NCBI GenBank assembly: GCA_012728785.1
Contig: JAAYEK010000143.1
Coordinates: 1 to 33,749, forward strand
DNA: 33,749 bases
Reading direction: 5' to 3'
Source: Bacillota bacterium
GTDB taxonomy: Bacteria; Bacillota; UBA4882; UBA8346
The notes under the pieces were generated by a model. It searched no databases, had not been told where the DNA came from, and saw only the letters and a list, made by a program, of their open reading frames with translations. Position numbers and translations under genes: made by a program. Positions 1-18,213 of this stretch are shown here, one piece after another; the stretch's first letter is position 1, and the number at the start of each line of letters is the position of its first letter.

Positions 1-3000
1 GCGGAATCTTTTAATTGGATAACTCCTCCACCTGCCACGCCGGCGGAATGGATTATGCCGTCGATCTTGCCATACTGTTGAATAATTTGTTCGAAAAGCG
101 CTTTCATGTCCTCAAAACTATTGACATCTGCCTGGGCCACGGTTATTTCCGCCCCGTTTTGTTCAAAGCCTTTGATTATTTCAATTTTCTTTCGAATCTC
201 ATCCTGTTCATCATGGGTCGCTATCCAATTATCCCATTCATTCTTTTGGGGAAAGGCGGATCTTCGCGTTAAGATCAACTTGACATTTTTAATACCGGAA
301 AGGTGTTCGGCAATTGTTAATCCAATACCGCCTATCCCACCGGTAATCAAATAGATACCACCATCTTTCAGTTTGGCCGGTTTCTCCGGCTTTTCTTTTA
401 TTTCATCCAATTCTAATTTATCGAAAACTTGAACATAACGCTCATGCCTGCGATAAGCAACCAAAGGCTCAACTTGATGGTGGCGCAATTCGGCTAAAAT
501 ATCATCCACAAACGAACTCCAATCGATTGGAGCGGAGGACAAGGGTATGTCAATATCAATATTTCGACAGGATATCTGCTGGAACTCCTGGGATATAACT
601 CTGCATGGACCTGTAATGACAGCCTTTTCAGGATATAATATATTATTATCAAATACGGGATGCAGGTTATTGGTGATCACAAAGAGTTTAATTTTATTAG
701 TATCCTTTTTAGTCAAAGCTTGGGTTAAAAATAGTAGACTGTTAAAACCGAGTTCGATACATTCTTCCACAAAGTCCAATCTTGAGGTTATATTCTGAGG
801 CGGTTGGGTTAACCATAAATGGGCGATATTTTCCGGTTGCCGCCCAGAATCAAATAAGTTCCGGATTAAGGAATCATAATCTTCTTTTACGGAAGGGTTA
901 ATCGTAAATAAATCATCGCTCAACTGCTCGAATTTCTGTCCCTGCTTGACGATGATAACTTGATTATCTTTTGGTAGCAGCCGTTCTTTGATTTGCCCAC
1001 CAATACCCAAAGCATCGGTGAAGATTAACCATACTTTGTGGGATTCCAGATCTTCCCCATCAATTCGGATGTTAAAAGACCGCTTCCACACAGGCGCATA
1101 TACCCATTCTGCAATATTATCATTCTTTTTGATCTGCTTATTAGAGGAAAAAGCAGTCGTTTGGTTATCGTCACCCTCAAACCAAAAATGTCGTTTGTTA
1201 AAAGCATATGTCGGCAACGGAATTCTTCGCTTTTTATCTTTACGGTAATATTTACGCCAGTTAATATTCTTGCCGTTTTGCCATATTTGGGTTAGCGCCG
1301 ACATAAAAACTTTGTCATCCTCCCCATTCTGGGCCGGATGTGGTAAAGTAGTCAAAACCACATGTCCGGATTGGCCTTCTATATTACTCTTGGCCAAACT
1401 GGTTAAGACTCGACCGGGCCCTATCTCTACCAGTATTTTATCCGAACCGTCGAGAAGGCCCTGAATCCCCTGACTAAATTGTACAGTCCGCCGCATATGT
1501 TGGGCCCAATAATTAGGATCTGTCGCTTCATGGGCCTCAATCCATTTGCCGGTCACATTAGAAATGTAAGGGATCTTCGGGGGATTAAGCTTTATTTTTT
1601 GCAACGCTTGCGTAAATTCCCCAAGTATCGGCTCTACCATCGGCGAATGGAAAGCATGGGAAGTCATCAGCCTTTGGTAATGAATCTGTTTTGAATTAAA
1701 AATATTTTCCAAGGCCGTAATCTCTTCAAAAGGGCCGGCAACCACATTCAAACCAGGGGCATTATTCACCGCCAAGGCCAGTTTATCCCCTAATAAAGGC
1801 AGTAAATCCTCCTGGGTTGCTGAAATGCTGAGCATTGCCCCTTTAGGCAACTTTTGCATGAGTTTACTACGAGTAACCAGAATGGATAAAGCATCGGTTA
1901 TATCAAATACACCAGCAACGCAAGCAGCAACATATTCTCCCAGACTATGACCAATCATATATTGAGGCGTTATTCCAAAACTTTCAAATAGCTTTACCAA
2001 CGCATACTCGATAATAAATATGGCGAGCTGGGCGATTTGTGTTTCATTGATCTGAGCCGATGCATTGGCAATATCCGATTCTTCGGGAAAGATTATTTTA
2101 TGTAAATCCAGATCAATCTTTGAAGTTAAAAATTCACAACAAAAATCGACTTGTTCTTTAAATACTCTCTCACGTCGGTATAATTCCTTCGCCATATTCA
2201 CATGTTGGGAACCTTGTCCGGTAAACATGAAAATTAATTCTTTCCGGTTTTTTTCGTTATTGAAGGTAAATGAGTTGGTTTCTAGCTGATCAACTAGCCC
2301 ATCAATCATTTCCTGAATGTTACTCCCCATAACCAGGCGACGATAATTAAAATGCTTACGACCCGCCTGTAAAGTATAGGCCATATCGGTCAAGTTTACC
2401 TGGGGATTCTCTTTCAGATACTGGATTAAATTCTCCGTATTCTTGTTAAGAGAAATTTCCGATTTAGCGGAGAGAGGAATTAGGTGAATCGATTGGTTTT
2501 CTTTTGTCTCCTCCACTAAAGGAGCTTCTTCAAGAATAAAATGGGCGTTAGTTCCTCCAAATCCAAAAGAACTGACTGCCGCCCTACGGGGGTATTTTGT
2601 TGTTTTCCAGTCAGTGAGAGTAGTATTAACATAAAAGGGCGAGTTTGCAAAATCTATCTCCGGATTCGGTTTTTTAAAATTAATCGAAGCCGGAATCTTT
2701 TTATTCTTTAAGCATAACACTACTTTAATGAGTCCCGCGATCCCCGAAGCAGCATCCAGATGGCCAATATTTCCCTTCACTGAGCCAATCGGGCAATATT
2801 GTTTTTGATCGATTTCGGTGCGATAAGCTTCGTTTAACGCTGCCATTTCAATGGAATCACCTACAATGGTTCCTGTTCCGTGGGTTTCAACATATGAGAT
2901 AGAATCCAGTTCCACTCCCGAACTAGCCAGCGCTTCCAGAATAACCATGGATTGCCCTTCAATGCCGGGAGCAATAAAAGAAGCTTTCGAGGCGCCGTCA

Positions 3001-3839
3001 TTATTAACGGCAGATCCTTTGATCACGGCATGAATCGTATCTTTATCCGCAAGAGCATCCTCCAGCCGTTTTAAAACAATAACTCCTATGCCATTACCAA
3101 AGAGGGTTCCTTTGGCGTCAGCGTCAAAGGGTCTACAATGCCCGTCGGGCGAGAAAATACTACCCGGCTGATAGGTATAACCGGCTTTCTGTGGCACATT
3201 AATTACGCAGCCCCCGGCTATGGCTATTTTACACTCATCCAACAGCAAACTTTGACATGCAAGATGGACAGCGGTTAGCGAAGTGGAGCAGGCGGTCTGA
3301 ATGTTATAAGTGGGTCCAAACAAATTTAACTTATAGGCGATACGGGTGCTTGTGGAATAGATACCATTACCTGTTGATACATTAGAGTTTTCAATAATCG
3401 AACTGGCTGTCATAGGAATGTATTTCAAAATATGAAACAGATATGTATTCATCTTAGTCCCGGTAAAAACTCCAACGGATTTTTCTCCATCAATATAACC
3501 CGCTCCCTCCAGAGCTTCCCAGGCGCATTCCAGCAACAAACGCTGCTGAGGGTCGATCATGATAGCTTCCGCAGGTGTACAGTCGAAAAAATCCGAGTCA
3601 AAAAGGGCTATATCATCAATAATGGAGGCTGCCTTGACATAATTTGGCTTTTGAAGTTCCTCCGGTTCGACCCCATTCTCCAGTAACTCATCATCACTAA
3701 AAAAAGTGATGCTTTCTTTTTCGGCGCACAAGTTTTCCCAAAATTCTTCCGGACTCTTCGCGCCTGGTAAACGACAGGCCATACCTATTATAGCAATATC
3801 CAGACCTTGCCCTTCGTTATTCTTATCGGGTTCACTCAT
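1..3839 (-). CDS. Type I polyketide synthase KS-AT-KR, 3' end cut off by the window
   Basis: The reading frame opens with ATG at 3839 and stays open to base 1, giving at least 1279 residues. The KS (about 10-435) has a normal active site, QTACSTSL with Cys184, and the HGTGT and NIGH histidine motifs. The AT (about 540-830) is complete: GQGSQ near 541, GHSLGE with nucleophile Ser632, and HAFHS at 728-732, a motif usual for malonyl-CoA specificity. A KR structural half follows (about 912-1160), then the NADPH-binding TGGIGGIG at 1166. The sequence ends inside the KR, so its catalytic Ser/Tyr and any carrier or release domain are not visible. The start overlaps the stop of the upstream PKS gene by 8 bases and has an AAGGAG-type ribosome site inside that gene, so the two are probably translationally coupled. 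This is the only intact AT of the three PKS proteins and may also serve the other two (inference). Confidence 0.95.
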   Translation of the reverse strand, partial: MSEPDKNNEGQGLDIAIIGMACRLPGAKSPEEFWENLCAEKESITFFSDDELLENGVEPEELQKPNYVKAASIIDDIALFDSDFFDCTPAEAIMIDPQQRLLLECAWEALEGAGYIDGEKSVGVFTGTKMNTYLFHILKYIPMTASSIIENSNVSTGNGIYSTSTRIAYKLNLFGPTYNIQTACSTSLTAVHLACQSLLLDECKIAIAGGCVINVPQKAGYTYQPGSIFSPDGHCRPFDADAKGTLFGNGIGVIVLKRLEDALADKDTIHAVIKGSAVNNDGASKASFIAPGIEGQSMVILEALASSGVELDSISYVETHGTGTIVGDSIEMAALNEAYRTEIDQKQYCPIGSVKGNIGHLDAASGIAGLIKVVLCLKNKKIPASINFKKPNPEIDFANSPFYVNTTLTDWKTTKYPRRAAVSSFGFGGTNAHFILEEAPLVEETKENQSIHLIPLSAKSEISLNKNTENLIQYLKENPQVNLTDMAYTLQAGRKHFNYRRLVMGSNIQEMIDGLVDQLETNSFTFNNEKNRKELIFMFTGQGSQHVNMAKELYRRERVFKEQVDFCCEFLTSKIDLDLHKIIFPEESDIANASAQINETQIAQLAIFIIEYALVKLFESFGITPQYMIGHSLGEYVAACVAGVFDITDALSILVTRSKLMQKLPKGAMLSISATQEDLLPLLGDKLALAVNNAPGLNVVAGPFEEITALENIFNSKQIHYQRLMTSHAFHSPMVEPILGEFTQALQKIKLNPPKIPYISNVTGKWIEAHEATDPNYWAQHMRRTVQFSQGIQGLLDGSDKILVEIGPGRVLTSLAKSNIEGQSGHVVLTTLPHPAQNGEDDKVFMSALTQIWQNGKNINWRKYYRKDKKRRIPLPTYAFNKRHFWFEGDDNQTTAFSSNKQIKKNDNIAEWVYAPVWKRSFNIRIDGEDLESHKVWLIFTDALGIGGQIKERLLPKDNQVIIVKQGQKFEQLSDDLFTINPSVKEDYDSLIRNLFDSGRQPENIAHLWLTQPPQNITSRLDFVEECIELGFNSLLFLTQALTKKDTNKIKLFVITNNLHPVFDNNILYPEKAVITGPCRVISQEFQQISCRNIDIDIPLSSAPIDWSSFVDDILAELRHHQVEPLVAYRRHERYVQVFDKLELDEIKEKPEKPAKLKDGGIYLITGGIGGIGLTIAEHLSGIKNVKLILTRRSAFPQKNEWDNWIATHDEQDEIRKKIEIIKGFEQNGAEITVAQADVNSFEDMKALFEQIIQQYGKIDGIIHSAGVAGGGVIQLKDS

Positions 3840-6800
3840 CGTTTCCTTCTCCTTCCGAAAACTTTAGCTGATGTTTTTTATTAAGTAGCTGATTCCGGCG
3901 GCTCAATGCTTCCTTTCTTTTACTTAAAATTTCCGATCTCATCTGTTTGGCGGAAGCATCCTCCTCCCCAAGCAACTGGGAAAGATCACGAATCGTTGCT
4001 TTTTGATAGAGTATCGCAGCCGGTATTTTTCGACCAAAAGCCGAGCTTATCTCATTCATAACATTAATTGAGATCAACGAATCGCCTCCGAGATCAAAAA
4101 AGCTATCATCGATACCGATTTTGTCGATACCAAGGCAATTCTCCCAGATAGCGGCTAACTTTTTTTCTGTCTCACTCCCAGGGGCAATAAAAAGTGTTTT
4201 AAGTTCAGGCCTTGGATGCTTAACATTTGCAGATTTTTTTTCGGTTTCATTGATATTCAAATGGACATTACCAAGTTGTAATATTCTCATCTGTAAATTT
4301 GTTGTTGATACAATGAGCCGACTACCGGTAAAAGCTGTAATAATTTTTTGAAAAGCCCGAATACCCTCCTCCGGTTCAATCGCATCTTTATAAATTCCTT
4401 CCTGAAGGCGCCGGTTCTTGCCAGTTAACTGCCAAATATCCCAACTGACAGAAAGCCAATAAGCGCCTTCCCGAGCTGCAAAACTATCCAGAAAAGAACA
4501 TTGCGCCGCATTAATGATCTGTCCCAAACCGCCTAATAACGGCGCCAATGATGAAATGAGCATTAAAAAGTCAAGTTGATACGGGGCTAGCGCCTTTTTT
4601 AAATGATAGACACTATTAATTTTAAGGTTGAAGTAATCGGCTGGTTTCCCATAATCAATTTCCTGTATTGGATAAAAGCCGGTATGGTTAAAATCATCTG
4701 CGCCATGAATAACGCCATGTAGTGCTCCATAGCTTTCAATAACCTGTTTTATTAATTGCTCTACTGGTTCATATTCACTTAAATCCATACAATCCCATTG
4801 TAACCTGCCGGTTTCTTCTAAATCGATGATTTTTTGAATTTTATTACCAACAATCTCTTCTTTATTTGACCATAAAGACCAAGAACCACGTTGGGGAAAT
4901 GATTTGTTTTCAATTAGTATAACCTTCGCCTGGCATGTCTTTACCAAATATTCGGCTATCAATAAACCGATACCGTTTGAATCATCAGTCACAAGATAGA
5001 CGCCTTCCCGGCGAAGAGGTTTATGGAGTTCCTTTAACTGTATCTGCTCATAGTTTGGTAACCAACGACGTTTGCCACGAAAAGCGATGATTTTATCAGA
5101 ACCGGCGGTTTGGATCTCTTTGAAAATCCGGCTGACATTTTCTACGACACCCGAAGAAGATATATTTGTTTGTTTCAAATCTAGGCAATAGCAATCAATA
5201 TACGGATACTCTATAGGAATAACACGCACAGGCGATAAAAGCGTCGCTTTCTCCGGACAGATGATGTCGTTATTTTCCACTTCCAAAAGATGGTCGGTTA
5301 TAATCCACATTTGATAGCTGAAATCCGGTAAAGAAGGCTTTTCCAAAGCGACAGCCGTATAAATTACACTCCAAAATCCTTTTTCCTGGAATGCGTCAAA
5401 AGTAGTTGTATCGGTTAGGCTATCCTTACCAAAGTCCGGATCATTATTCAAGCTCCATAGGTGGAGAATTTTACTAGGAACCACATCTTGGTCTTTCAAA
5501 GTAGTGAATAAAGCTTGATAATCTCTTTGCTGCCCGGGGTGAATGCTGTAACAATCTTTAGCCAACGTCTGAAATGAGCCTCCGGCATAAACTAGAATGA
5601 CTCGTTGCTTATTTGCCTTTAAATACCTGTCTAGCTCGGAGGAAAACGGTGATTGATCACAAAATACCAGCCATTTTTCTTCTTGTTCAAAAACATAGTC
5701 CTTATTCGGTAAATTGGAACTTTTCCAACCCGGAAAATAGAACCAGTTGTCGGGATCATTTTCTTTAATAATATTCTTTTCTATGGATGGGCGCGCGTCT
5801 TCTTCCAAAGCTCCTTGCTGTATGCGTTCGATCCAATAACGCTCCCTCTTAAAAGGATAAGTCGGTAAGGGGATCCTTCGTCTGGTTTCATTTATGTACA
5901 AACCTTGCCAGTCGATTTTCACTCCTTTTAACCATAATTCTCCAAGGACATGGAAAAAAGATGATACATCGGATTCGTTCCCCTGATAATCATTATTGGT
6001 TCGGTAGATCAAAGCATTTTTCAACCCTGTCATTGCATCCGAGTTAAGGCTTGATCGACCGATTTGCAAAAATATTTTTTCCGTTTCATCGTCGGTAATC
6101 TTAAGTAAACCGCTGGTAAACTGTGACGTTGTTTTTCGAACTGCCAGCCAATAATCGGCAGACAATGCTTCACTATCGCTAATCCAATGTCCAGAAATAG
6201 CTGATATAAAAGGGATTTTCGGCGCATTTCTTTGAAGTTCCCGGATGGCATTTTGAAAATCAAAATGCGCCTGTTCAGATATGTTATTTTCCGCAGAAAG
6301 ATCCTGTCCAAGATATAGCAAGAAAACTTGTTCAACTGAGAGCACCCCGGCAACGCAAGCAGTAGTGTATTCTCCTACGCCCTCGCCAATCATAGCCTCC
6401 GGAATGATACCGATGGTGATGAGAAAAGCCGCAAGTGAGTACTCAGTTATAAAATGATCAATCTTCTTTAGTATAGGAGACCCTTCGAGCTCATAGATGG
6501 ATTGACGGGTAATCCGAACATTAGGCTGACCGGTTTTGCTTAACAATTCATTTAAGATGTCAAGACATTTATCGTATTTTTCTTTGAAAAGCGGTTCATG
6601 TTCATATAAACCACAAGGTATATAATCTTCCTGATTATCCTCCCCCGGGAAAACAAAAACAACCGGTCTGTTTTCCAAATCAGTAAATGAAGAAACGATT
6701 TTGGAGTTGTCGCCGGACTGTAAAATAGCGACTGCCTCTTTAAGATCACTAAATACAGCAAATAATCTGTAGTTGAAATCCTTTCTGCCTGTCTGCAGTG

Positions 6801-8253
6801 TAAAGGTCACATCCGCCGGATTTAGCCCGCTGTTTTGGCGAAGTGATTCCACTAGTGCTTCTCTGGTAAGAGTTAAAGCGTTTTCCGTTTTTGCGGATAA
6901 GAGCAACAAATGACAATTCCTTACACTGTCGGTCACCTTTACTTCCGGCGCTTCCTCAAGCACAAGATGGACATTGGTGCCTCCGACTCCAAAAGAACTC
7001 ACCCCAGCGCGACGTAGTGGATGTTCCCATTCTTTTAATTCGGTATTAACGAAAAATGGTGTGCTTAGAAAGTCTATTTCCGGATTGGGCGCCTTAAAGT
7101 TCAAACTGGCCGGAATTTGGCGGTAATGTAAAGCCAAAACAGTTTTTATTAAACTGCTGATACCGGCTGCTCCCGCTAGATGCCCAATTTGCGTTTTCAC
7201 AGAGCCGATAGCGCAATAATTCTTTTCGGTGGTCGTCTGCGCTTTAAATGCTTTCGACAAAGCTCTGATTTCCACCGGATCGCCCATTTTCGTGCCCGTT
7301 CCATGAGTCTCTACATAACTAATGGTCTCTGCGCCACAACCGGCTACGGAAAGAGCTTCGGCGATGACAGCAGCTTGACCATCCACTCCGGGCGCGGTAT
7401 AACCAACCTTATCCGCCCCGTCGTTATTCATAGCCGAACCTTTGATAATGGCAAAAATGGTATCGCCTTTGGCTAAAGCATCTTCCAGACGCCTTAATAC
7501 CACAACTCCAACGCCACTCCCAAAGACCGTTCCGTTGGCCTCCGCGTCGAAAGCCCGGCAATAACCATCCGGACTTACAATACTGCCGTCCGAATACTGA
7601 TAACCATACTGTTGCCGTACATCAATGGAAATCCCTCCGGCAATTGCAATATCACTTTCTTGATTAAGCAGATTTTGGCAGGCCATATGAACAGCCACTA
7701 AAGAGCTGGAACAAGCTGACTGTACTGTACAACTCGGTCCGGTTAGATTCAATTTATAAGACACCCGTGTGGCCAGATAATCATTTCCATTACTCACATC
7801 GATCTGAACCGGGTCCAATTGATTTAATAGTTCCGGGTTTGATAACAGATTATAGAGTAAATAAGTATTCGTCGTAGCGCTGGCGAATACGCTGATAATT
7901 TCAGCGGTCTTTTCAGGAGAATAACCTGCGGATTCCAACGCCTCCCAGGCGCATTCCAAGAAAATCCGATGCTGAGGATCCATTAATGCCGCTTCTCGCG
8001 GTGTATATCCGAAGAACGACGCATCGAATAATTCTATATCGTCAAGCATAGAGCAGACTTTTACATAGCCTGGTTTTTGTAAGCTTCGGCGATCCACTCC
8101 CCTGGATAATAATTCTTCATCATCTAGAAAGCGTATCGCCGGAATACCGTTTTTCAGGTTTTGCCAGTACGCCTCGATGCTATTAGCACCGGGGAAACGG
8201 CCACTCATGCCGATGATAGCAATTTCACAACCCGAGTATTCTCTCTCTTTCAT
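3832..8253 (-). CDS. Type I polyketide synthase, KS with inactive AT and inactive KR, ACP (1473 aa)
   Basis: Domain order is KS (about 8-435), AT remnant (about 530-750), KR (about 830-1320) and ACP (about 1360-1428). The KS looks active, with Cys181 in QSACSSSL, His317 and His358. The AT is degenerate: the GHSxG motif reads GEGVGE (623-628), so the nucleophile Ser is Gly625 and its neighbouring His is Glu624. About 70 residues holding the small subdomain and the HAFH histidine are missing, and the N-terminal GQGSQ is lost. The KR keeps Lys1211 and Ser1235, but the catalytic Tyr is Asn1248, the following Asn is Cys1252, and the cofactor loop reads VTDDSNGIG, so reduction is not expected. The ACP has the phosphopantetheine Ser1392 in LGGDSL. 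A charged helical tail (about 1436-1462) follows. The gene lies 30 bases after the upstream PKS gene and overlaps the next. It probably extends a chain only if malonyl units are loaded in trans. Confidence 0.95.
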   Translation of the reverse strand: MKEREYSGCEIAIIGMSGRFPGANSIEAYWQNLKNGIPAIRFLDDEELLSRGVDRRSLQKPGYVKVCSMLDDIELFDASFFGYTPREAALMDPQHRIFLECAWEALESAGYSPEKTAEIISVFASATTNTYLLYNLLSNPELLNQLDPVQIDVSNGNDYLATRVSYKLNLTGPSCTVQSACSSSLVAVHMACQNLLNQESDIAIAGGISIDVRQQYGYQYSDGSIVSPDGYCRAFDAEANGTVFGSGVGVVVLRRLEDALAKGDTIFAIIKGSAMNNDGADKVGYTAPGVDGQAAVIAEALSVAGCGAETISYVETHGTGTKMGDPVEIRALSKAFKAQTTTEKNYCAIGSVKTQIGHLAGAAGISSLIKTVLALHYRQIPASLNFKAPNPEIDFLSTPFFVNTELKEWEHPLRRAGVSSFGVGGTNVHLVLEEAPEVKVTDSVRNCHLLLLSAKTENALTLTREALVESLRQNSGLNPADVTFTLQTGRKDFNYRLFAVFSDLKEAVAILQSGDNSKIVSSFTDLENRPVVFVFPGEDNQEDYIPCGLYEHEPLFKEKYDKCLDILNELLSKTGQPNVRITRQSIYELEGSPILKKIDHFITEYSLAAFLITIGIIPEAMIGEGVGEYTTACVAGVLSVEQVFLLYLGQDLSAENNISEQAHFDFQNAIRELQRNAPKIPFISAISGHWISDSEALSADYWLAVRKTTSQFTSGLLKITDDETEKIFLQIGRSSLNSDAMTGLKNALIYRTNNDYQGNESDVSSFFHVLGELWLKGVKIDWQGLYINETRRRIPLPTYPFKRERYWIERIQQGALEEDARPSIEKNIIKENDPDNWFYFPGWKSSNLPNKDYVFEQEEKWLVFCDQSPFSSELDRYLKANKQRVILVYAGGSFQTLAKDCYSIHPGQQRDYQALFTTLKDQDVVPSKILHLWSLNNDPDFGKDSLTDTTTFDAFQEKGFWSVIYTAVALEKPSLPDFSYQMWIITDHLLEVENNDIICPEKATLLSPVRVIPIEYPYIDCYCLDLKQTNISSSGVVENVSRIFKEIQTAGSDKIIAFRGKRRWLPNYEQIQLKELHKPLRREGVYLVTDDSNGIGLLIAEYLVKTCQAKVILIENKSFPQRGSWSLWSNKEEIVGNKIQKIIDLEETGRLQWDCMDLSEYEPVEQLIKQVIESYGALHGVIHGADDFNHTGFYPIQEIDYGKPADYFNLKINSVYHLKKALAPYQLDFLMLISSLAPLLGGLGQIINAAQCSFLDSFAAREGAYWLSVSWDIWQLTGKNRRLQEGIYKDAIEPEEGIRAFQKIITAFTGSRLIVSTTNLQMRILQLGNVHLNINETEKKSANVKHPRPELKTLFIAPGSETEKKLAAIWENCLGIDKIGIDDSFFDLGGDSLISINVMNEISSAFGRKIPAAILYQKATIRDLSQLLGEEDASAKQMRSEILSKRKEALSRRNQLLNKKHQLKFSEGEGNDE

Positions 8254-8283
8254 CTTCTAATACCTTCACTCATTTCCCACATA

Positions 8284-11200
8284 TTATTTATTCCGTAAAA
8301 TACGTTCCCGCCTTTTTTGCCCTCGGTCAAGGCTTTTCTGTATTTGTTCCGTATCATCTTCCGTTCCTTGATTACGGCTTAATATTAATGAACTGAGCAT
8401 TTTAATGGTCGGGCTTTCATAAATGTCTAGTGAAGACAATTGATAATTGTACCGATTCGTTATGTCAGCAATCAATTCAACTCCAACCAGGGAATTACCG
8501 CCTAACTCAAAAAAGTTATCGTTAATACCAACGGATTCCAGTCCCAATACCCTCCCCCATACTTCGGCCAATTCTTTTTCCAGTTTAGTCTGAGGAGCAA
8601 TATAACTATTCTGTAGTGCTGGCCGTGGTAAACGAGCCACATTTTCCTTTTTTAGCGGTTGTTTATTTGCATCCGTCCGCGATGAATCCTGGTTCCCCAG
8701 CGTCCATCTTCTAAGCCGCCTATCCAAACTACTCGTCGAAACAAGGTATTGATTCCGAAGCGGATAATTAGAAAATATGCGTATGAACGTGTCTTCCCCT
8801 TCTTCAGCGGTGATAGCCAAATCAAGCAAAGGTGTTCCAAAATCCTTATACATGAGGCTAGTGGAGGAGAAGGCATCCCAATTGACACTCATCCAAAAGC
8901 TAGTGGAAGATTGGTTACAGCTGTTAGCAAAAGCATCCATAAAAAGGTTTCCGGCCGCATATTCGGCCAACCCTAATCCACCAAGCATAGCCGAAAGGGA
9001 AGAGCATAACAGACAGAAATCCAAAGTTTCTTCTTTTAAAACCTCTTTCAGTACATAAAGGCCGTTCCATTTGGTTTTAAGATTACCAGCCGGATCCCGG
9101 AAGCTGATATTCCGGATTGGTTTGAAAATCTCATCATTAACTGCGCCGGCTGCGTCGATAACGCCATTTAGGCCTTTAAACCTCGTTTTGACGTATTGGA
9201 GCGCCGCTTTCATCTGCTCCGCATCAAGTAAATCCGCTTTTAAATAGATAACTTCACAATCCATTTCATCTAAAACTTGCAGCTTTTTTATTTTTGAAGA
9301 TATCGGATCGTCCTCTCCATGAGCGAGTAACCAAGCATCCCATTGTTCCTTTTCCGGTAACGAAGTAGAGCCGGTAAGCGCCAGCTTCACTTTACCTTGC
9401 TTGGCCAAGGCTCTTGCCGAACAGTATCCGATGGTGCCCAATCCGCCTAAAATCAGATAGACGCCGTCTGCTTTGAGGAGGGGTTTACCTCCAGTTTTAG
9501 GCAGTCGTAAAGCTTCCACCGTCTGAATAAAGCGTTGCCCGCCCCGACAAGCGATGACTTGATTTTCAGTTGCGCCATACATCACTTCCTGCGTCAACTC
9601 CATCACCAACTGTTTTTCTTGGACGCTACCGGGCACCGGGAGAACAACATCCAGATAGCGGCAGGTAATATGCGAGTATTCCTGGGGTATAACCTTGCAT
9701 GCCCCTAATAAAGTGGTTTTTTCCGGAGATATTGGCTCAATCCCGCTTACATCCAGTGTTTGGCTGGAAATAATGGTAAACAGCATATTTTTCCGGGAAA
9801 GGCCATTCAAGGCAGTACCTTGTTCGATAGCTTTAACCAAAAAAAGCAGGCTGTTAAAACCATTAGCTAAGCAGTCACTCAGATAATCAGTGTTTACGCC
9901 ATCCCGTTTCGAAACATATAAACTCCTGAAGTCAATTACATTACCCGGCTCCAAACCATTCTGATTTAAATCCTCGATCAACCGTTCGTAATCCTCAAAT
10001 ACCAGGGGATTCATCTGGTAATGATCTGAGGTTAGCCTAGCAAAATTCGGACCGAAACTGACGATTATGACCTGTAAGTCATGGCCTTTCAATATATTGA
10101 TGCATTGGTCGATTAACGAATCATTTTGCTGTTTTGTCTGTTCAGGAAGTAAAACCAGATATGGGCCTTCCCTCCGGACACTAGCAACATCGATGTTGAA
10201 GTTCTCCTTTTTCCACGCCGGCGCATAAAACCAGTTTTCGGGGGCCATTTTTAAATCTTCCGGTGGGAGTTCCGCCTCATTATCCTTGGTTTCCATTTTT
10301 ACCGGTTCGACCCAATGGCTCTTATATTCAAAAGGATAGGTGGGTAGAGGTATACGGTGAGAAATATCTCCTTCAGGATGATGCAACTTTTCTATATCCG
10401 GATTACAACCGGCCAGCCACAATCGGCCGACGGTTTCGAGTAAGGCCGCATATTCCGTCCGGTAGCCATATGTCTTGGAACTGCAATTTAGTAGCTGATA
10501 TTTTCCTAAATCCAAATTCTCAGCGAGAATCTCCCGCTTTATTCTATCTGTTAACTCAGTCCCCGAATTTACTTCCAGGAGAATCGCGGCCGAATCGGCC
10601 AATAGGCTTTTAATGATCTCGATAAATCCGACAGCTTCGTGTCGCTGTTGCCAATAGAGAGAATCCGTCGCTTCCGCCTTCGTTATCCAATTACCGGACA
10701 ATCCCGAAAGGAAGGGAATCATAGGTTCATTGAATACCGACGGGTTTATCGGAGAAAAGTTATTAGCAATATTGTTGATATTAATTACCAAGCTTAAAGC
10801 ATCTTGCAAACTCATAACCTCTGACAGGCATGCAGCAACGTATTCACCGACACCTTGCCCCAGCATACCCTGGGGTTTAATGCCCCAATCGAGCAAAACT
10901 TGAGCCAATGCATATTCAATCGTGAAAATTACCAGCGGGGTTATACCTTTTTTATTAATCTCCTCAAGAGATGCCTGCATTTCCTCTTGATTCGCCGCAT
11001 AAAAGTACTTTTTAAGATCTGTTGTCAGGAAGGGACTTACATATTCCAGGCAGGTATCCAAAGAGCTTTTAAAAAGGGGAATATCCCGATATGTATCGGT
11101 GGTAAAGTATTCAAAGCGGGTTAGTTCATCAGGGAACAAAAAGAATACTAACCGGTTTCCCGCTCCCTCCGCCGCATCTGTGAAAACACGTTCAGGTGTA

Positions 11201-12741
11201 ACTGATTTTAAGGCCTGAACTGCATCGTCGATACCGGTACAAACCAGAGCCCGTCTATAATCGAATCGGTTTCTGCCCGCATGTAGAGTATAGGAGACAT
11301 CGCCCAAGTCGACATTTGAATCTGTTTCCAGATAACGGACTAAATTCCGGGTAGCTTTCTCCAAAGCGGTCTCCGTTTTGGCAGATAAAAGTAGTAACGA
11401 GGCTGACCTCGGATTACCCTTTTGTTCAGCTTCCGGGGGTTCAGCGACAATTATATGTGTATTGGTTCCCCCCATGCCAAAGGAATTCACTCCTGCGATC
11501 CGGTATGTGGAGTCCCAGTCGCATAGTTTTGGATTGATATAAAAAGGGCTGTTTTCCAGATCCAATTCCGGATTCGGTGTAGTGAAATTAATATGTGGAG
11601 GAATCTTTTTATGTTTTAACATTAAAACGGTTTTGATAAGACCTGCTATACCAGATGCGGAATCTAAATGGCCAATGTTGGGTTTAACCGACCCAATGGC
11701 GCAAAAATTCTTTTTATCGGTTACTGCCTCAAATACCTGTTTAAGAGAGGTCATCTCAATTGGGTCGCCGACTCTGGTACCGGTACCATGGGCCTCAATA
11801 TAGCTGATGTCTTCGGAGGTAACCCCTGCAATAGCCTGGGCAATGGCAAATACCTCGCTTTGTCCTTCGACACCCGGCGCCATATAACTGACTCTCACCG
11901 CACCGTCATTATTAACGGCGGAACCTTTAATCACCGCCCAGATGGTATCACCATCCGCAAGCGCATCCGCTACCCGTTTCAGTAACACAACACCAGCGCC
12001 ATGTCCTGCTACAAATCCATCCGCAGCAGCGTCAAAAGCCCGGCAATGGCCGTCGGAAGAAGTCGTGCCGCCTTCCATGTATAGATAACCGGATTTTTCG
12101 GGGAAATGTACGGAAACACCGCCCGCTAACGCCATATCGCTTTCATAATTCAATAAGCTCTGGCAGGCATAATGCACAGCTGTCAAAGAAGTTGATGACG
12201 AACTCTGGATGGTTACCGCCGGACCTTTTAAGTTTAAGCGGTAGGCGACTTCTGTGGTTAAACTATCTTTATCATTTCCAATGGAAACCTGTAAACTTTC
12301 TACCGATTCAACATTTCGAATCAGATGCAACAGATTATGCAGCATATAGGTATTCATGCTGGAACCGCCGAAGATACCGACACGCCCTTGATGATTATCC
12401 GGGCAATATCCTGCGCTTTCAAAAGCTTTCCAGGCGCATTCCAGAAAGAGACGATGCTGTGGATCCATTAAAGCGGCTTCCCTGGCATGTAATCCAAAAA
12501 ACTGGGCATCAATCAGATCAGTGTTGCCCAAAACGCCCCTTGCTTTAATAAAATTAGGTTTTTTAATCAATTCCGGATCAATACCGGATTCTAACAATTC
12601 TTCATCGGAAAAGAATGAAATGGATTCGATACCGTTACAAATATTATGCCAATATTGCTCCACATTTTCCGCGCCTGGGAAGCGTCCTGCCAGACCTATA
12701 ACAGCAATGCCTTCTTTTTCGTTTTGCTTAAAATTGTACAT
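8284..12741 (-). CDS. Type I polyketide synthase, Cys-less KS with inactive AT, intact KR, ACP (1485 aa)
   Basis: Domain order is KS (about 10-435), AT remnant (about 530-760), KR (about 835-1345) and ACP (about 1383-1455). In the KS the active-site Cys is replaced by Ser182 (QSSSSTSL, against QTACSTSL in a sister protein), while His318 and His358 remain. The AT motif reads GQGVGE (628-633), with Gly630 where the nucleophile Ser should be. About 80 residues, including the HAFH region, are missing. The KR looks functional: LGGLGTIG cofactor loop (1098-1105), Lys1224, Ser1248, Tyr1261 and Asn1265. The ACP carries Ser1417 in LGGNSL, within a DNFFELGG context more typical of peptidyl carriers. 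A charged tail ends the protein. A GAAGGGAT ribosome site precedes ATG 12741, 36 bases after the NRPS gene. A KS with both His but no Cys recalls decarboxylating loading KS domains, so elongation by this KS is unlikely (inference). Confidence 0.95.
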   Translation of the reverse strand: MYNFKQNEKEGIAVIGLAGRFPGAENVEQYWHNICNGIESISFFSDEELLESGIDPELIKKPNFIKARGVLGNTDLIDAQFFGLHAREAALMDPQHRLFLECAWKAFESAGYCPDNHQGRVGIFGGSSMNTYMLHNLLHLIRNVESVESLQVSIGNDKDSLTTEVAYRLNLKGPAVTIQSSSSTSLTAVHYACQSLLNYESDMALAGGVSVHFPEKSGYLYMEGGTTSSDGHCRAFDAAADGFVAGHGAGVVLLKRVADALADGDTIWAVIKGSAVNNDGAVRVSYMAPGVEGQSEVFAIAQAIAGVTSEDISYIEAHGTGTRVGDPIEMTSLKQVFEAVTDKKNFCAIGSVKPNIGHLDSASGIAGLIKTVLMLKHKKIPPHINFTTPNPELDLENSPFYINPKLCDWDSTYRIAGVNSFGMGGTNTHIIVAEPPEAEQKGNPRSASLLLLSAKTETALEKATRNLVRYLETDSNVDLGDVSYTLHAGRNRFDYRRALVCTGIDDAVQALKSVTPERVFTDAAEGAGNRLVFFLFPDELTRFEYFTTDTYRDIPLFKSSLDTCLEYVSPFLTTDLKKYFYAANQEEMQASLEEINKKGITPLVIFTIEYALAQVLLDWGIKPQGMLGQGVGEYVAACLSEVMSLQDALSLVININNIANNFSPINPSVFNEPMIPFLSGLSGNWITKAEATDSLYWQQRHEAVGFIEIIKSLLADSAAILLEVNSGTELTDRIKREILAENLDLGKYQLLNCSSKTYGYRTEYAALLETVGRLWLAGCNPDIEKLHHPEGDISHRIPLPTYPFEYKSHWVEPVKMETKDNEAELPPEDLKMAPENWFYAPAWKKENFNIDVASVRREGPYLVLLPEQTKQQNDSLIDQCINILKGHDLQVIIVSFGPNFARLTSDHYQMNPLVFEDYERLIEDLNQNGLEPGNVIDFRSLYVSKRDGVNTDYLSDCLANGFNSLLFLVKAIEQGTALNGLSRKNMLFTIISSQTLDVSGIEPISPEKTTLLGACKVIPQEYSHITCRYLDVVLPVPGSVQEKQLVMELTQEVMYGATENQVIACRGGQRFIQTVEALRLPKTGGKPLLKADGVYLILGGLGTIGYCSARALAKQGKVKLALTGSTSLPEKEQWDAWLLAHGEDDPISSKIKKLQVLDEMDCEVIYLKADLLDAEQMKAALQYVKTRFKGLNGVIDAAGAVNDEIFKPIRNISFRDPAGNLKTKWNGLYVLKEVLKEETLDFCLLCSSLSAMLGGLGLAEYAAGNLFMDAFANSCNQSSTSFWMSVNWDAFSSTSLMYKDFGTPLLDLAITAEEGEDTFIRIFSNYPLRNQYLVSTSSLDRRLRRWTLGNQDSSRTDANKQPLKKENVARLPRPALQNSYIAPQTKLEKELAEVWGRVLGLESVGINDNFFELGGNSLVGVELIADITNRYNYQLSSLDIYESPTIKMLSSLILSRNQGTEDDTEQIQKSLDRGQKRRERILRNK

Positions 12742-12777: not shown

Positions 12778-15700
12778 TTATCGTAAACGATTCATTTTAT
12801 TTTTAAGCATCTCATTGCGTTGTCCCAGGATTTGCTTTCGTTTTTCCATTTCGTCTTGGATTTCATTGAATATATTCTTTTGATTATCATTTTCACTAAT
12901 GCTCTGGGCCAATAATCGAATCGTCGGATGTTTGAACATGTCTACCAAAGGTATATCACATTGGCAAGTAGCTTTTATCCTTTGATGCGCCTGAGTGATC
13001 AAGATGGAATTTCCGCCTAATTCGAAAAAGTTATCATTGATACCGATTTTATCAATCTTCAATATATCCTGCCAAATTTGTAAAACCTTTTGTTCCGTTT
13101 CGTTTTCGGGGGCCAGATATGCAGTATTTAAAACCGGTCGCATGGCTGTCGGTTCCGGTAAAGCGTCCCAGTTAACCTTCCCGTTGGAATTAAGCGGGAT
13201 ACTGTCCAGTCTTTCAAAAGCAGCGGGAACCATATAAAACGGAACCTTTTGGACCAACCAATTGTGCAATTCGCTATGGTTCAAACGGTCATCGTCAGAG
13301 ACAAAGTAGGCGACCAGCTTTCGGTTACCGGACGGATCGTCTCTGGTAACGGCCACAGCATCCGAAACTTTAGGATGTTTACGTAAAGCGGTTTCCACCT
13401 CGCCTAATTCGATCCGGTAACCCCGGATTTTCACTTGTTGGTCCTTTCGACCGAGATATTTTAAAACCCCTTCCGGTAACCAAGCGCCGAGATCACCGGT
13501 TTTAAAGAGCCGTTCTCCCGGTTTAAAGGGATGGGCGATAAATCGTTCATCGGTAAATATCGGATTATTAAAATAACCGCGCGCCAATCCTAAACCACCG
13601 ATGTATATTTCACCCGTACAACCCGGCGGCATGAGCTCCAACTGTTCACCCATCACATAAACGTCGGTATTGATAATCGGACGGCCGATTGGCAGTCCCC
13701 CCATGAATTGCTCATTGATTTCTTGGATTGGATGATATGTGGAACAAACTGTTGTTTCCGAAAGACCATAAGAATTGATGATCGCGACCGAGTTTGTCAA
13801 AGTGTCGATATCATTAATTTGCAGGGCTTCTCCACCACTCAAAATAAGACGTAGGCGGGCAAGATCCTGTTTCTTATGATTCAAGCCGGCAATGAATGTC
13901 GGTACGGTGCTTATGATCGAAACATGGTGGTCCGCAATTAAGGAAAACAATTTTTCCGGATCAAGATAATCCTGGGGTCTAGATAATACCAGAGTCCCGC
14001 CGGCACAGATCAAAGGAAGTATCTCCCCGACAAAACTTGCGGAAGCAATGGAGGTTAATGGCAATATCTTATCTTCGGTAGTCGGATTGTAAGTAAGAAT
14101 AAACGAATGAATCAAATTAGTGATCCCTTGATGAGTAAGCATTACACCCTTAGGAATTCCCATGGAGCCGGAAGTATAAATGATACAAGCCAGGTTATCC
14201 GATCCCGCTTTTTCCCCTTCCCTGTCTCCTTTTACCGGGAAACGATCAATGCTTTCCCATTCCCGATCAATAGCGAGAATCCTAACTTCCGAAGCTTGAC
14301 CTTTCAGTTGCGGCGTTAAATAATCCATCGATAAGACAAATGGACATCCTGTCTCGGATAAAATAAAGCCGATCCGTTCTTCCGGCCAACCAGGATCCAA
14401 CGGCAAGTAAGCTCCACCAGCCATCAGAATCCCTAAAATGCTCACCAGCAGCTCCAAGGAGTGCTCCATGTATATACCGATACATGTCTCCGGTCCTATT
14501 CCGTTTTCAAATAAATATCCAGCCAGTTTACCCGCGCGGAGACACAATTCACCGTAGGTCAGCTTTTCTCCTTTATACTCTATGGCGACATGTTCCGGAG
14601 TTTTAGCAGCCTGTCGCCGGAATAATTCCACAATGGTTGTACCGACATAAGTGTGATCCGTATCTCCATTCCATTCTCCAAGCAGCTTTTCCCTTTCGAC
14701 TAGGGAAAGTAACGGTAATTCCGTTAAGGGAGATGAAGGTTGATTAATAATTCCTGTAAGCAAAGTTTCCAAATGAACACACATACGCCGGATAGTTTCT
14801 TCTTTATATAAATCCTTGTTAAATTCGAAAGAAGCAACCAAATTGTTATCGGCTTCTCCCATGGTCAAGGTCAAATCGAATTGCGCAACCTTCTGATCCA
14901 GCACCATCGATTCAAGTTTTAGCCCCGCCAACTTCATTGGAGCGCCCTCAATGTTCAGTGAGAAGGCGGTTAACCCTTCCTTATTAAATTTATAAGCTCT
15001 TTGATAGGCGAACATAATCTGAAACAATGGTGAACGGCTGTAATCCCGTTCCGGTTTTAGTTCGTTCACCAATAGATCGAATGGATAATCCTGTCCGGCC
15101 AGCGCTTCCAGTAGGTATGTCTTTGTCTGGTCTAATAAATCGGTAAATGAGAAGTCAGGTTGCGGTTTAGACCTTACCACCACCGAATTAACAAAATAAC
15201 CTAAAGTTTGTGTAAATTCCCTTTCGCTACGACCGGTTGTGGGAATACCGATTAAAAAATCCTCCTGTTTCGTATATCGGTAAATAAGGAGCTGGAACGC
15301 TGCCAAGAGTAATGTATGCATGGTAACATTAACTTTCCTGGCGAATTCTTTTACTTTTTCCGAAAGCGTTGCGTCAAAGCGGACCGTATAAATTTGTCCT
15401 TGATAGGTTTGTACGGGCGGACGCGGAAAATCCACCGGCATGTTCAGAACCGGCAACTGCCCGGCTAATTGTTTCATCCAATAAGAACGTAATTTTTCAC
15501 CCTTGGCCGAAGAAAGCATCGCTTTTTGCCAATGGACAAAAGCGGCGTAGTTTTGGGTTCCCGCTAATGAGGCGAAATCCTGTTCTTGAGCTTCAGGATT
15601 ACATTCTGTGGTATAAAACTGGCCCAATTGTTCAATGATCAGACTAAGAGACCAGAAATCCGTAATGATATGATGCAAGACCATCAGTAAAATGGTTTCT

Positions 15701-18213
15701 CGATCAGATTTTCTAAACAGAACGATCCGCAATAACGGGCCCTTTTCAAGATCAAAAGGCCTTCTTGCTTCCTGTTCTATCCGACTATTTATAGTTTCAT
15801 CGTTCAAAACCGAGGCGTCGACGAGGTAATACTCCGGTTCTAAAGTCTCATGAACCTTTTGCACCTCAGTCTTCAAGATATTGGAATAGTTAAATGTGGT
15901 CCGTAAAATCCCATGCTGCCGTACTAATTTTTGGAAAGCCCTGAATAAAGCATCTGCATTTAATCCGTTGGTGATTCTCACCGCGCAAGGAACATTATAG
16001 GCAGAACTTTCCGGCGCTAACTGATACAGGAACCAGAGCGCCTTCTGTCCATGAGATAGGGGATATTCGGCGTAATTATGAGAAGGGACAAATTCCAAAG
16101 CGTCTGAAAATTCCGATTCTTTTTGGATGGATGGCTCGTTAAGTTCCCGGATGATCAGCTCACTAATCTGAACGACGCTAGCCCCCTGCAAAATATCTAT
16201 AATTGGGATATTAACACCTAAGTTGCCATCAAGTATGTTCTTTATTTCTAAAGCTGTTACGGAGTCGACGCCTAGCGAGATAATCGAGGTCTGGCAGTCA
16301 ATGCGGGAAACCGGCAGAGCCAATGCCTGGGAAAGTTGGATCTGCAGGTAACGGCAGAGAAGTTGCCCTAATAATGCAGGATCATCTTCATTTTTGATAT
16401 CCGCTAAAAGATCCGGTTCCTCAACCGACTGCATAGAGGCCACAGAAATCTTCGCGGTACTGATGCCGACAAGTTCCAGTCCCTGATTGATAAATAAATC
16501 CCGACAGCGGTAACGTTGGATTTTTCCGCTAGTGGTTTTGGGAATACTAAAATATCTGATAAAAGCAATGGTATGTACCGGAATCTCATAAACTTCCGTA
16601 ATCGCCTGCCTTATACATAGGGCTATTTCTTCAAGGTCGATATTTTTATAATCCCGTTTTAATTCTTCAACGATTACCAGCTCTTCACATCCATCCATCT
16701 CAACGGAAAAAGCGGCGCAAGCTCCGGTGTTCAAAGCAGGATGGGCTTCACTCGCTATAAGCTCAATGTCCTGGGGATAATAGTTACGTCCTTTATAGAT
16801 GATCAAATCCTTGATTCGTCCGGTGATATATAGTTGATTTTCACAAATAAAACCCAAATCGCCGGTACGGAGATAAGGTCCGGCTTGGGTATCTTTAATA
16901 TAAGCTTGAAAAGTATCCTTGCTCATCGCCGGCTTCCGCCAGTATCCTTGCGCGACACTTTCACCGCTAACCCATACCTCGCCAATTTCGTTATCCAAAC
17001 AGAGTGTACACTCCTGCGGATTTACAATGACAACCCTTTGATCGGCGTGAGTTTGGCCGCAACCAACCATGGCAAAATAATCGGTTCTGAAATCATTCTC
17101 AGCGCCGTTAATGTCCGGCGGACATGGAGTAGTGCAATGAATAACTTTATTTTGAGAAAGAGCGTTTTTGCTGATAAAACGCACTGTCGGTTCCAGCTCT
17201 TTTTCAACGCCGGTAACAAACAAAGTCGCTTCGGCCAAACCATAACAGGGATAAAAAGCTTTACGTTTAAATCCACATGACTTAAATGCCTTTTCAAAAC
17301 GATCCAACACTTCACTATGTATCGGTTCCGCGCCATTAAAAGCTAGATCCCAACTGGATAAATCGAATTTACTCTTTTCTTCCTGGGAAATTTTATTGAC
17401 ACATAAATCATAAGCAAAGTTAGGACCCCCACTGGTTGTAGCCTTGTATCGGGTAATTGCATGTAGCCAACGGTCAGGTTTTTGAATGAAATCAAAAGGA
17501 GACATCAAGGTAACTGGAAATCCGCCATACAGGGGTTGCATAATTCCACCGATTAAACCCATATCGTGATAAGGGGGTAACCAGATCACGCCCCGGCTTG
17601 AAGAATCATGCCCGAAACATGAGTAAATCTGGGATAAATTGTGCATGATGTTGCCGTGACTTACTATCACACCTTTAGGAGAAGCCGTCGAACCTGATGT
17701 ATACTGAAGAAAAGCGGGGCTATTCTTTTCGACAAAAACCGGAGTCTCCTCCTCCGGCTGATCCTCAGCAGGATCGTCGATTAATATCCATATTACCGTA
17801 TCAAGTCCATAATGATTGATAAATTTTAGCCGAACTTTATTGGATATCTCTTGATTTGTCAGAATAATCCCTACATTGGCGTCACTCAATATTGCTTTGA
17901 TTCGTAAATCCGGCTTATTGATTCGCGGCAACGGAGTTGGAATGGCTATTGCCCCGGCGTATAAACATCCAAAAAAAGCTTTGACAAAATCGAGTCCGGG
18001 TGAGAAAAATAATAATACAGGTTGTCCGCTGCCTCCATTCCTGATGATTTTGGAAGCAATCTCGCGGGCTGCGAAGTCCAGTTCGGCATAATTCAAGTTT
18101 ACTTCTTTAGTTTCACCGTCTAATAGATAGGTATATCCAATTTTTTGAGATTGGTTTTTTGCGCGCCATTTTAATATGGCCGCCAAAGATGCACATGAAT
18201 TCAAGTTCAACAT
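12778..18213 (-). CDS. Hybrid FAAL-ACP-C-A-PCP nonribosomal peptide synthetase (1811 aa)
   Basis: The N-terminal fatty acyl-AMP ligase (about 1-585) has the AMP-binding YTSGSTASPKG (171-181), the YHDMGLIGG segment and RIKDLIIYKGRNYYP (466-480), as in FAAL enzymes that pass acyl-adenylates to a carrier protein. An ACP follows (about 612-690; Ser651 in LGVDS). The condensation domain (about 716-1165) has the active-site HHxxxDxxS at 847-855. The adenylation domain (about 1195-1690) has YTSGSMGIPKG (1346-1356) and the A10 Lys1679. The final PCP has Ser1736 in LGGNS, and a charged tail follows. By alignment to GrsA the specificity code reads A-S-G-S-I-S-S-V-C-K. The usual Asp235 is Ala1392, which argues against a standard alpha-amino acid. 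There is no epimerase, methyltransferase or thioesterase. It is the first gene of the operon and collinear with the PKS genes, so it probably starts the product with a fatty acyl chain. Confidence 0.95.
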   Translation of the reverse strand: MLNLNSCASLAAILKWRAKNQSQKIGYTYLLDGETKEVNLNYAELDFAAREIASKIIRNGGSGQPVLLFFSPGLDFVKAFFGCLYAGAIAIPTPLPRINKPDLRIKAILSDANVGIILTNQEISNKVRLKFINHYGLDTVIWILIDDPAEDQPEEETPVFVEKNSPAFLQYTSGSTASPKGVIVSHGNIMHNLSQIYSCFGHDSSSRGVIWLPPYHDMGLIGGIMQPLYGGFPVTLMSPFDFIQKPDRWLHAITRYKATTSGGPNFAYDLCVNKISQEEKSKFDLSSWDLAFNGAEPIHSEVLDRFEKAFKSCGFKRKAFYPCYGLAEATLFVTGVEKELEPTVRFISKNALSQNKVIHCTTPCPPDINGAENDFRTDYFAMVGCGQTHADQRVVIVNPQECTLCLDNEIGEVWVSGESVAQGYWRKPAMSKDTFQAYIKDTQAGPYLRTGDLGFICENQLYITGRIKDLIIYKGRNYYPQDIELIASEAHPALNTGACAAFSVEMDGCEELVIVEELKRDYKNIDLEEIALCIRQAITEVYEIPVHTIAFIRYFSIPKTTSGKIQRYRCRDLFINQGLELVGISTAKISVASMQSVEEPDLLADIKNEDDPALLGQLLCRYLQIQLSQALALPVSRIDCQTSIISLGVDSVTALEIKNILDGNLGVNIPIIDILQGASVVQISELIIRELNEPSIQKESEFSDALEFVPSHNYAEYPLSHGQKALWFLYQLAPESSAYNVPCAVRITNGLNADALFRAFQKLVRQHGILRTTFNYSNILKTEVQKVHETLEPEYYLVDASVLNDETINSRIEQEARRPFDLEKGPLLRIVLFRKSDRETILLMVLHHIITDFWSLSLIIEQLGQFYTTECNPEAQEQDFASLAGTQNYAAFVHWQKAMLSSAKGEKLRSYWMKQLAGQLPVLNMPVDFPRPPVQTYQGQIYTVRFDATLSEKVKEFARKVNVTMHTLLLAAFQLLIYRYTKQEDFLIGIPTTGRSEREFTQTLGYFVNSVVVRSKPQPDFSFTDLLDQTKTYLLEALAGQDYPFDLLVNELKPERDYSRSPLFQIMFAYQRAYKFNKEGLTAFSLNIEGAPMKLAGLKLESMVLDQKVAQFDLTLTMGEADNNLVASFEFNKDLYKEETIRRMCVHLETLLTGIINQPSSPLTELPLLSLVEREKLLGEWNGDTDHTYVGTTIVELFRRQAAKTPEHVAIEYKGEKLTYGELCLRAGKLAGYLFENGIGPETCIGIYMEHSLELLVSILGILMAGGAYLPLDPGWPEERIGFILSETGCPFVLSMDYLTPQLKGQASEVRILAIDREWESIDRFPVKGDREGEKAGSDNLACIIYTSGSMGIPKGVMLTHQGITNLIHSFILTYNPTTEDKILPLTSIASASFVGEILPLICAGGTLVLSRPQDYLDPEKLFSLIADHHVSIISTVPTFIAGLNHKKQDLARLRLILSGGEALQINDIDTLTNSVAIINSYGLSETTVCSTYHPIQEINEQFMGGLPIGRPIINTDVYVMGEQLELMPPGCTGEIYIGGLGLARGYFNNPIFTDERFIAHPFKPGERLFKTGDLGAWLPEGVLKYLGRKDQQVKIRGYRIELGEVETALRKHPKVSDAVAVTRDDPSGNRKLVAYFVSDDDRLNHSELHNWLVQKVPFYMVPAAFERLDSIPLNSNGKVNWDALPEPTAMRPVLNTAYLAPENETEQKVLQIWQDILKIDKIGINDNFFELGGNSILITQAHQRIKATCQCDIPLVDMFKHPTIRLLAQSISENDNQKNIFNEIQDEMEKRKQILGQRNEMLKNKMNRLR

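What the first reader, a model, noticed from the sequence alone, without database searches (positions are those of the whole stretch)
5838..11151. Both PKS proteins carry the same kind of AT remnant: Ser to Gly and loss of the small subdomain
The GHSxG motif reads GQGVGE in one protein and GEGVGE in the other, and both lack some 70-80 residues that hold the HAFH histidine, by comparison with the intact AT of the neighbouring protein. The flanking large-subdomain parts are kept. In trans-AT systems a shortened AT remnant can serve as a docking surface for a separate AT. Here the likely donor would be the AT inside the next PKS (Ser632), which would be an intact cis-AT also serving in trans. That is inference.
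Basis: partly seen in the sequence, partly recalled or inferred. Interest (0 to 1): 0.75.

Follow-up and report, generated by a model that had tools for sequence, protein, structure and literature searches.

The report
Dead acyltransferase stubs in polyketide synthases
Two neighbouring polyketide-making enzymes each carry a dead, trimmed stub of their building-block loading domain, and the same kind of stub turns up in a third enzyme of this bacterium and in about 3% of sampled cyanobacterial genomes, so a recurrent and apparently undescribed way of losing this domain has left modules that must be loaded by another enzyme or not at all.

Summary
P0002 (8284-12741, minus) and P0001 (3832-8253, minus) keep the AT large subdomain but lack 79 and 69 residues that hold the small subdomain and the catalytic His; Ser, Gln and Arg are lost too. 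P0004 next door has an intact malonyl-type AT (Ser632).

Going beyond the finding: a third stub (contig C190) lies in a sister FAAL-NRPS cluster of the same genome. The same excision was verified in 12 of 388 sampled cyanobacterial genomes, 5 further cyanobacterial plasmid records and 1 of 349 Pseudomonadota. A KS tree needs 14 changes for 20 stubs (4 forced by well-supported branches), so the loss recurs. One stub still holds Ser, Arg and a His, which suggests that excision comes first and the active site decays later. In the window's stubs the AT part is unusually diverged; KS and KS-AT linker are not. P0002 also lost the KS Cys, P0001 the KR active site.

New variant of a known kind.

The parts
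8284..12741 (-). P0002, 1485 aa: KS(Cys182->Ser)-AT stub-KR-ACP
10528..11145 (-). AT stub of P0002 (residues about 533-738), large subdomain only; GQGVGE at 10843-10860
   Evidence: AF2 model, VIA Z 36 to ZmaA AT 4qbu
12196..12198 (-). TCA (Ser182) in place of the KS active-site Cys of P0002 (two base changes from any Cys codon)
3832..8253 (-). P0001, 1473 aa: KS(Cys)-AT stub-KR(dead)-ACP
6049..6663 (-). AT stub of P0001 (residues about 531-735), large subdomain only; GEGVGE at 6370-6387
   Evidence: AF2 model, VIA Z 35.7 to 4qbu
4429..5004 (-). KR of P0001 with broken NADPH motif (TDDSNGIG) and catalytic Tyr replaced by Asn1248
   Evidence: P0002 KR keeps GGLGTIG, Ser, Tyr1261, Asn
3..3839 (-). 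P0004, at least 1279 aa: KS-AT(intact)-KR, runs off the contig end
1311..2234 (-). Intact AT of P0004 (GQGSQ, GHSLGE Ser632, Arg657, HAFH His731), malonyl-type motif
12778..18213 (-). P0003, 1811 aa: FAAL-ACP-C-A-PCP, acyl-amino acid starter unit upstream of P0002

Best explanation
P0002 and P0001 are cis-AT type PKS modules that lost their AT by excision of the small ferredoxin-like subdomain followed by decay of the active site (the losses are shown by sequence; the order is inferred from relatives). The remaining large subdomain stays as a folded but dead filler between the KS-AT linker and the post-AT linker, which keeps the KS-linker platform intact (inferred from the predicted fold, the reading-frame retention and the relaxed but purifying selection in relatives). 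The KS of P0001 and the ACPs of both proteins look functional, so P0001 most likely still elongates with malonyl brought in trans, most simply by the intact AT of P0004, with the discrete AT of the genome or FabD as alternatives (inferred). P0002 probably does not condense (KS Cys to Ser) but offers an intact-looking KR and ACP; P0001 can condense but cannot reduce. The two may act as complementary halves of one elongation and reduction step (inference).
For: All four catalytic AT residues (Gln, Ser, Arg, His) lost in both; two-piece HMM match with positions about 126-202/216 missing; predicted AT large-subdomain fold, pTM 0.83 and 0.80, VIA Z 36.0 and 35.7 to ZmaA AT. ACP Ser motifs LGGNSL and LGGDSL kept; P0001 KS Cys-His-His kept. 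AT-part identity relative to KS is 0.60 (P0001) and 0.65 (P0002) against 0.84-1.26 in 39 intact ATs, while linker to KS (0.66, 0.76) is normal. In two orthologue pairs of cyanobacterial stubs dN/dS of the stub is 0.34 and 0.16, against 0.07 and 0.14 for KS and 0.14 and 0.11 for intact ATs next door. An intact cis-AT lies in the adjacent module in almost every stub locus, and nine of ten other stub genomes hold only one free-standing, FabD-sized AT.
Against: No biochemical or interaction evidence. The P0004 donor idea does not explain the sister cluster C144+C190, which shows no AT. The genome has a discrete AT (C43) that could do the job. Intact neighbours are expected in any cis-AT cluster, so adjacency discriminates weakly. 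Some relatives of the stub modules also lost the ACP Ser or the whole ACP, which suggests that at least some stub modules do not elongate. The AF2 alignments consisted mostly of intact ATs, which biases the models towards the AT fold.
Confidence: 0.5

Rival explanations
1. One reading: the stubs are specific docking surfaces, and the intact AT of P0004 docks there and loads all three proteins.
For: Stub retained as an open frame and predicted to fold; intact P0004 AT; adjacent intact cis-AT in nearly all related loci and no dedicated discrete AT in nine of ten other stub genomes.
Against: The AT part of the window's stubs is strongly diverged and in the UHCC 0926/G702 pair it is the most relaxed part of the protein, not the pattern of a conserved interface; no complex could be predicted here.
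Confidence: 0.22
2. A free-standing AT (the discrete AT on C43 that accompanies AT-less PKS genes, or FabD on C19) loads the ACPs of all stub modules in both clusters.
For: Three stubs in one genome, and the genome has a discrete AT with GHSLGE and classical AT-less modules on C43 and C274; sister cluster has no AT on 37.5 kb.
Against: The C43 AT is not linked to either cluster in the assembly; the other stub genomes lack a dedicated discrete AT apart from FabD, G713 perhaps excepted.
Confidence: 0.3
3. The stub modules are non-elongating: they pass or modify the chain without adding a unit, so that no AT is needed.
For: P0002 lost the KS Cys; P0001 lost the KR; some relatives lost the ACP Ser (NIES-22 GMNYSM, G788 GLDYSM) or the ACP (G564, G466).
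Against: P0001 and C190 keep a complete KS triad and ACP; 65 of 65 other KS parsed keep Cys.
Confidence: 0.25
4. Assembly error or recent pseudogenisation of P0002 and P0001.
For: Draft genome of 296 contigs.
Against: Two full open frames, KS and linker under normal constraint, the same anatomy in independent genomes; Cys to Ser needs two base changes.
Confidence: 0.03

Closest known systems
Hybrid cis-AT/trans-AT assembly line of colibactin (ClbB/ClbI with ClbC, ClbK, ClbO, discrete AT ClbG)
   Same: One NRPS-PKS line whose modules receive an extender unit from a separate AT: ClbG is reported to load ClbC, ClbK, ClbO and ClbI (PMC5923317). That some of its modules carry an inactive AT is from my own knowledge. 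N-acyl starter, MATE exporter and a maturation hydrolase are also seen in the sister cluster here (FAAL, MATE, penicillin acylase-like).
   Different: A dedicated discrete AT in the cluster is known there and not found here; whether the Clb modules share this exact excision was not tested. A solved ClbK chain (8cjh, 787 aa) matched the stub profile only in part.
Classical trans-AT PKS with AT docking domain (leinamycin, bacillaene type)
   Same: KS and KS-AT linker kept, AT activity absent, extender unit needed from elsewhere.
   Different: There the AT is gone (123-233 aa between KS and post-AT motif in the AT-less modules read here), KS domains form separate clades, and discrete ATs are encoded; here 349-367 aa remain and the KS domains are of cis-AT type.
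PepC of the pepstatin cluster, described as a PKS with a truncated AT domain (PMC12081711)
   Same: A truncated AT in a small NRPS-PKS cluster.
   Different: That paper classes it as a cis-AT PKS; the anatomy of the truncation was not examined here.
AT of one module serving successive modules (aureothin, as cited in PMC9899208)
   Same: One AT loads more than one module.
   Different: Within one protein there; across proteins here, and not demonstrated.

Membership tests
Catalytically competent cis-AT (Acyl_transf_1, PF00698) | GHSxG Ser and HAFH His | tested here: not met
   Gly in both at the Ser position, His absent
Catalytically competent cis-AT (Acyl_transf_1, PF00698) | Large and small subdomain both present | tested here: not met
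   AT HMM positions about 126-202/216 missing
Catalytically competent cis-AT (Acyl_transf_1, PF00698) | Homology and fold of the large subdomain | tested here: met
   HMM; VIA Z 36.0 and 35.7 to 4qbu; models biased by intact homologues
Classical trans-AT PKS module | AT absent, KS-AT linker joined to the post-AT linker by a short segment | tested here: not met
   359-362 aa in P0001/P0002 against 169-171 aa in AT-less modules of the same genome
Classical trans-AT PKS module | KS belongs to a trans-AT KS clade | tested here: not met
   Stub KS of the window lie among cis-AT KS; the AT-less KS of C274, C43 and Paenibacillus form their own clade, support 100
Classical trans-AT PKS module | Discrete AT encoded in or near the cluster | tested here: inconclusive
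   None on the window; contig ends inside P0004; a discrete AT exists on unlinked C43
Colibactin-like hybrid cis/trans-AT line | Intact cis-AT and AT-dead modules in one assembly line | tested here: met
   P0004 intact, P0001 and P0002 dead
Colibactin-like hybrid cis/trans-AT line | Dedicated discrete AT loading the dead modules | not testable with these tools
   needs loading assays
Non-elongating (KS0) module | KS without catalytic Cys | tested here: met
   P0002 only, Ser182; P0001 keeps Cys
Non-elongating (KS0) module | No ketide unit added to the product | not testable with these tools
   product unknown

The most novel reading that the evidence does not exclude
A recurrent, undescribed PKS module type: KS plus a large-subdomain-only pseudo-AT, which arises repeatedly by clean excision of the AT small subdomain in cis-AT clusters and is then retained as a scaffold or landing site, so that a neighbouring module's cis-AT (not a dedicated trans-AT) supplies the extender unit: an evolutionary halfway house between cis-AT and trans-AT PKSs.
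Probability: 0.35. Interest if true: 0.68.

Novelty: new variant of a known kind. Interest (0 to 1): 0.5.

Why it matters
How AT-less modules arise, and whether an AT inside one module can serve other proteins, are open questions for PKS evolution and engineering. A set of some 20 stubs at different stages of decay, with a plain anatomical signature and mostly without a dedicated trans-AT in the genome, makes both testable. It also warns that annotation can call such modules AT-containing and so mispredict products.

Tried and rejected
Allorhizobium/Agrobacterium vitis tblastn hits to the stub looked like stubs by length; reading the S4 protein showed a full AT with HAFH, so rejected. Continuing C126 into another contig: no overlap. 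No stub in the sampled genomes of the class beyond this genome (29 searched), nor seen in two samples of 398 and 367 genomes of its phylum. Literature searches for AT remnant, pseudo-acyltransferase and related phrases gave nothing on this anatomy; the library lacks most subscription papers, so absence is weak. The Foldseek and VIA lists did not show a solved structure of a stub; they print only the top 50, so this does not exclude one. Neutral decay was considered: the close NIES/PCC trio gives dN/dS 0.43-0.73 from few changes, but two wider orthologue pairs give 0.34 and 0.16, so pure junk is unlikely for those. A single inherited stub was rejected: 14 changes for 20 stubs on the KS tree, 4 forced by well-supported branches. 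A careful version of the first KS tree did not finish; the quick tree was used. The first dN/dS script failed and was rerun.

Full report
OBSERVATION. The window is contig C126 of a 3.7 Mb genome in 296 contigs. The genome probably belongs to the phylum of the Clostridium MAG behind locus L028: a genome drawn as 'same phylum' as the window (G163) and one drawn from the phylum of G418 (G1293) have the same match coordinates (inference). On the minus strand the order is P0003 (FAAL-ACP-C-A-PCP), P0002, P0001, P0004.

ANATOMY. Aligned to P0004 and to other intact ATs, P0002 and P0001 lack 79 and 69 residues, from near the catalytic Arg to past the catalytic His. An HMM built from intact ATs matches both proteins only at positions 1-117/125 and from 202/216 onward. 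Gln of GQGSQ is Glu in both, Ser is Gly, the following Arg is Ile and Gln, and His is gone. Predicted models of the linker-stub-linker region (pTM 0.83 and 0.80) match AT structures over about 350 residues (Z 36.0 and 35.7 to 4qbu); the alignments consist mostly of intact ATs, so fold agreement is partly built in. That the missing segment is the small ferredoxin-like subdomain rests on established knowledge of the FabD/AT fold and on an alignment with the genome's own FabD.

OTHER LESIONS. P0002 has Ser182 in place of the KS Cys, by a TCA codon two changes from any Cys codon, with both KS His kept; 65 of 65 other KS that could be parsed have Cys. P0001 has an intact KS triad but a dead KR (TDDSNGIG; Tyr to Asn); the P0002 KR looks intact. 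Both ACPs keep Ser. So the two proteins together hold one good KS, one good KR and no AT.

THIRD STUB IN THE GENOME. C190 encodes a 943-aa KS-stub-ACP protein with GLDWLGE. C190 joins C144 by an exact 127-base overlap (assembly-graph adjacency, not proof), which gives a second cluster: FAAL-ACP-C-A-PCP (40% identical to P0003), MATE, KS-stub-ACP, penicillin acylase-like hydrolase. No AT lies on these 37.5 kb.

RELATIVES. Searches with the stub profile over 388 cyanobacterial genomes gave 12 stubs verified by HMM, with motifs such as GSQIGE, GYGVGE, GQGVGE, GSGVGE, GNNVGE; a 13th candidate (G501) has only the first half recognised. Plasmid records add Nostoc C052 (GDGIGE), Calothrix NIES-22, Aulosira NIES-50 and Tolypothrix PCC 7601 (GHSVGE kept) and Gloeothece PCC 7822 (GQSVGE). 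One of 349 Pseudomonadota has a stub (GHGIGA). Only some candidates per genome were scored, so these counts are lower bounds. None was seen in the other genomes of the class (29 searched) or in the two phylum samples.

EVOLUTION. The distance between KS and post-AT motif is trimodal. On a KS tree 20 stubs need 14 changes, 4 forced by well-supported branches, and five stub modules form one clade (support 99), so there are both repeated losses and a long-lived stub lineage. On the first tree the P0002 KS is sister to the P0004 KS (support 94), but the second tree does not repeat this, so that detail is unsure. G713 lacks the small subdomain yet shows GQSVGE, RGRLM and KFHSP; the NIES trio and G624 keep Ser; others have Ser to Gly; the window's stubs have lost all four residues. 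No AT of intact length that was read lacks the Ser. This suggests that excision comes first and active-site decay follows (inference from present states).

CONSTRAINT. Relative to KS, the AT part of P0001, P0002 and C190 is more diverged (0.60, 0.65, 0.71) than in any of 39 intact modules (0.84-1.26), whereas the KS-AT linker is normal. Younger stubs (C052, G564, NIES-22) fall inside the intact range. In two orthologue pairs dN/dS of the stub is 0.34 and 0.16, against 0.07 and 0.14 for the KS. The stub is therefore kept, with relaxed constraint: a better fit to a scaffold or filler than to a tightly conserved docking face, though a small interface is not excluded.

WHO LOADS. In almost all stub loci an intact cis-AT lies in an adjacent module; the exceptions include C190 and the Pseudomonadota case. 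Nine of ten other stub-bearing genomes searched have one free-standing AT only, FabD-sized; G713 has two. The window's genome has FabD and a discrete AT on C43 beside AT-less PKS genes. This leaves three options: a neighbouring cis-AT, a free-standing AT, or no loading.

VERDICT. A real and recurrent dead-AT module type; the individual case is a new variant of hybrid cis/trans-AT organisation. The mechanism is open between the three options.

Noticed in passing
window 12196-12198 (minus): The KS of P0002 has Ser (TCA) instead of the catalytic Cys; the neighbouring P0001 has a dead KR while P0002 keeps a good one, a complementary pattern.
   Followed up: partly
L041+L042+L032 (C144 joined to C190): Second FAAL-ACP-C-A-PCP cluster with MATE exporter, KS-stub-ACP and two penicillin acylase-like hydrolases, plus sulfotransferase and sulfate activation genes: looks like an N-acyl prodrug, perhaps sulfated.
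   Followed up: partly
L141 7327-11994 (G713): AT without small subdomain that still has GQSVGE, RGRLM and KFHSP: a possible very young stub, or a minimal AT worth an activity test.
   Followed up: no
L089 13060-16290, L140 8748-11999: In these stub modules the ACP serine is replaced by Tyr (GMNYSM, GLDYSM), so AT and ACP are both dead while the KS is kept.
   Followed up: partly
L036 1-1105 (C43), L033, L039: Discrete AT and classical AT-less PKS modules: the genome has a separate trans-AT system split over several contigs.
   Followed up: partly
L035 (C131), L034 (C185): PfaA-like tandem-ACP PKS fragment and KS/3-oxoacyl synthase genes, apparently a PUFA-synthase-like cluster in the same genome.
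   Followed up: no
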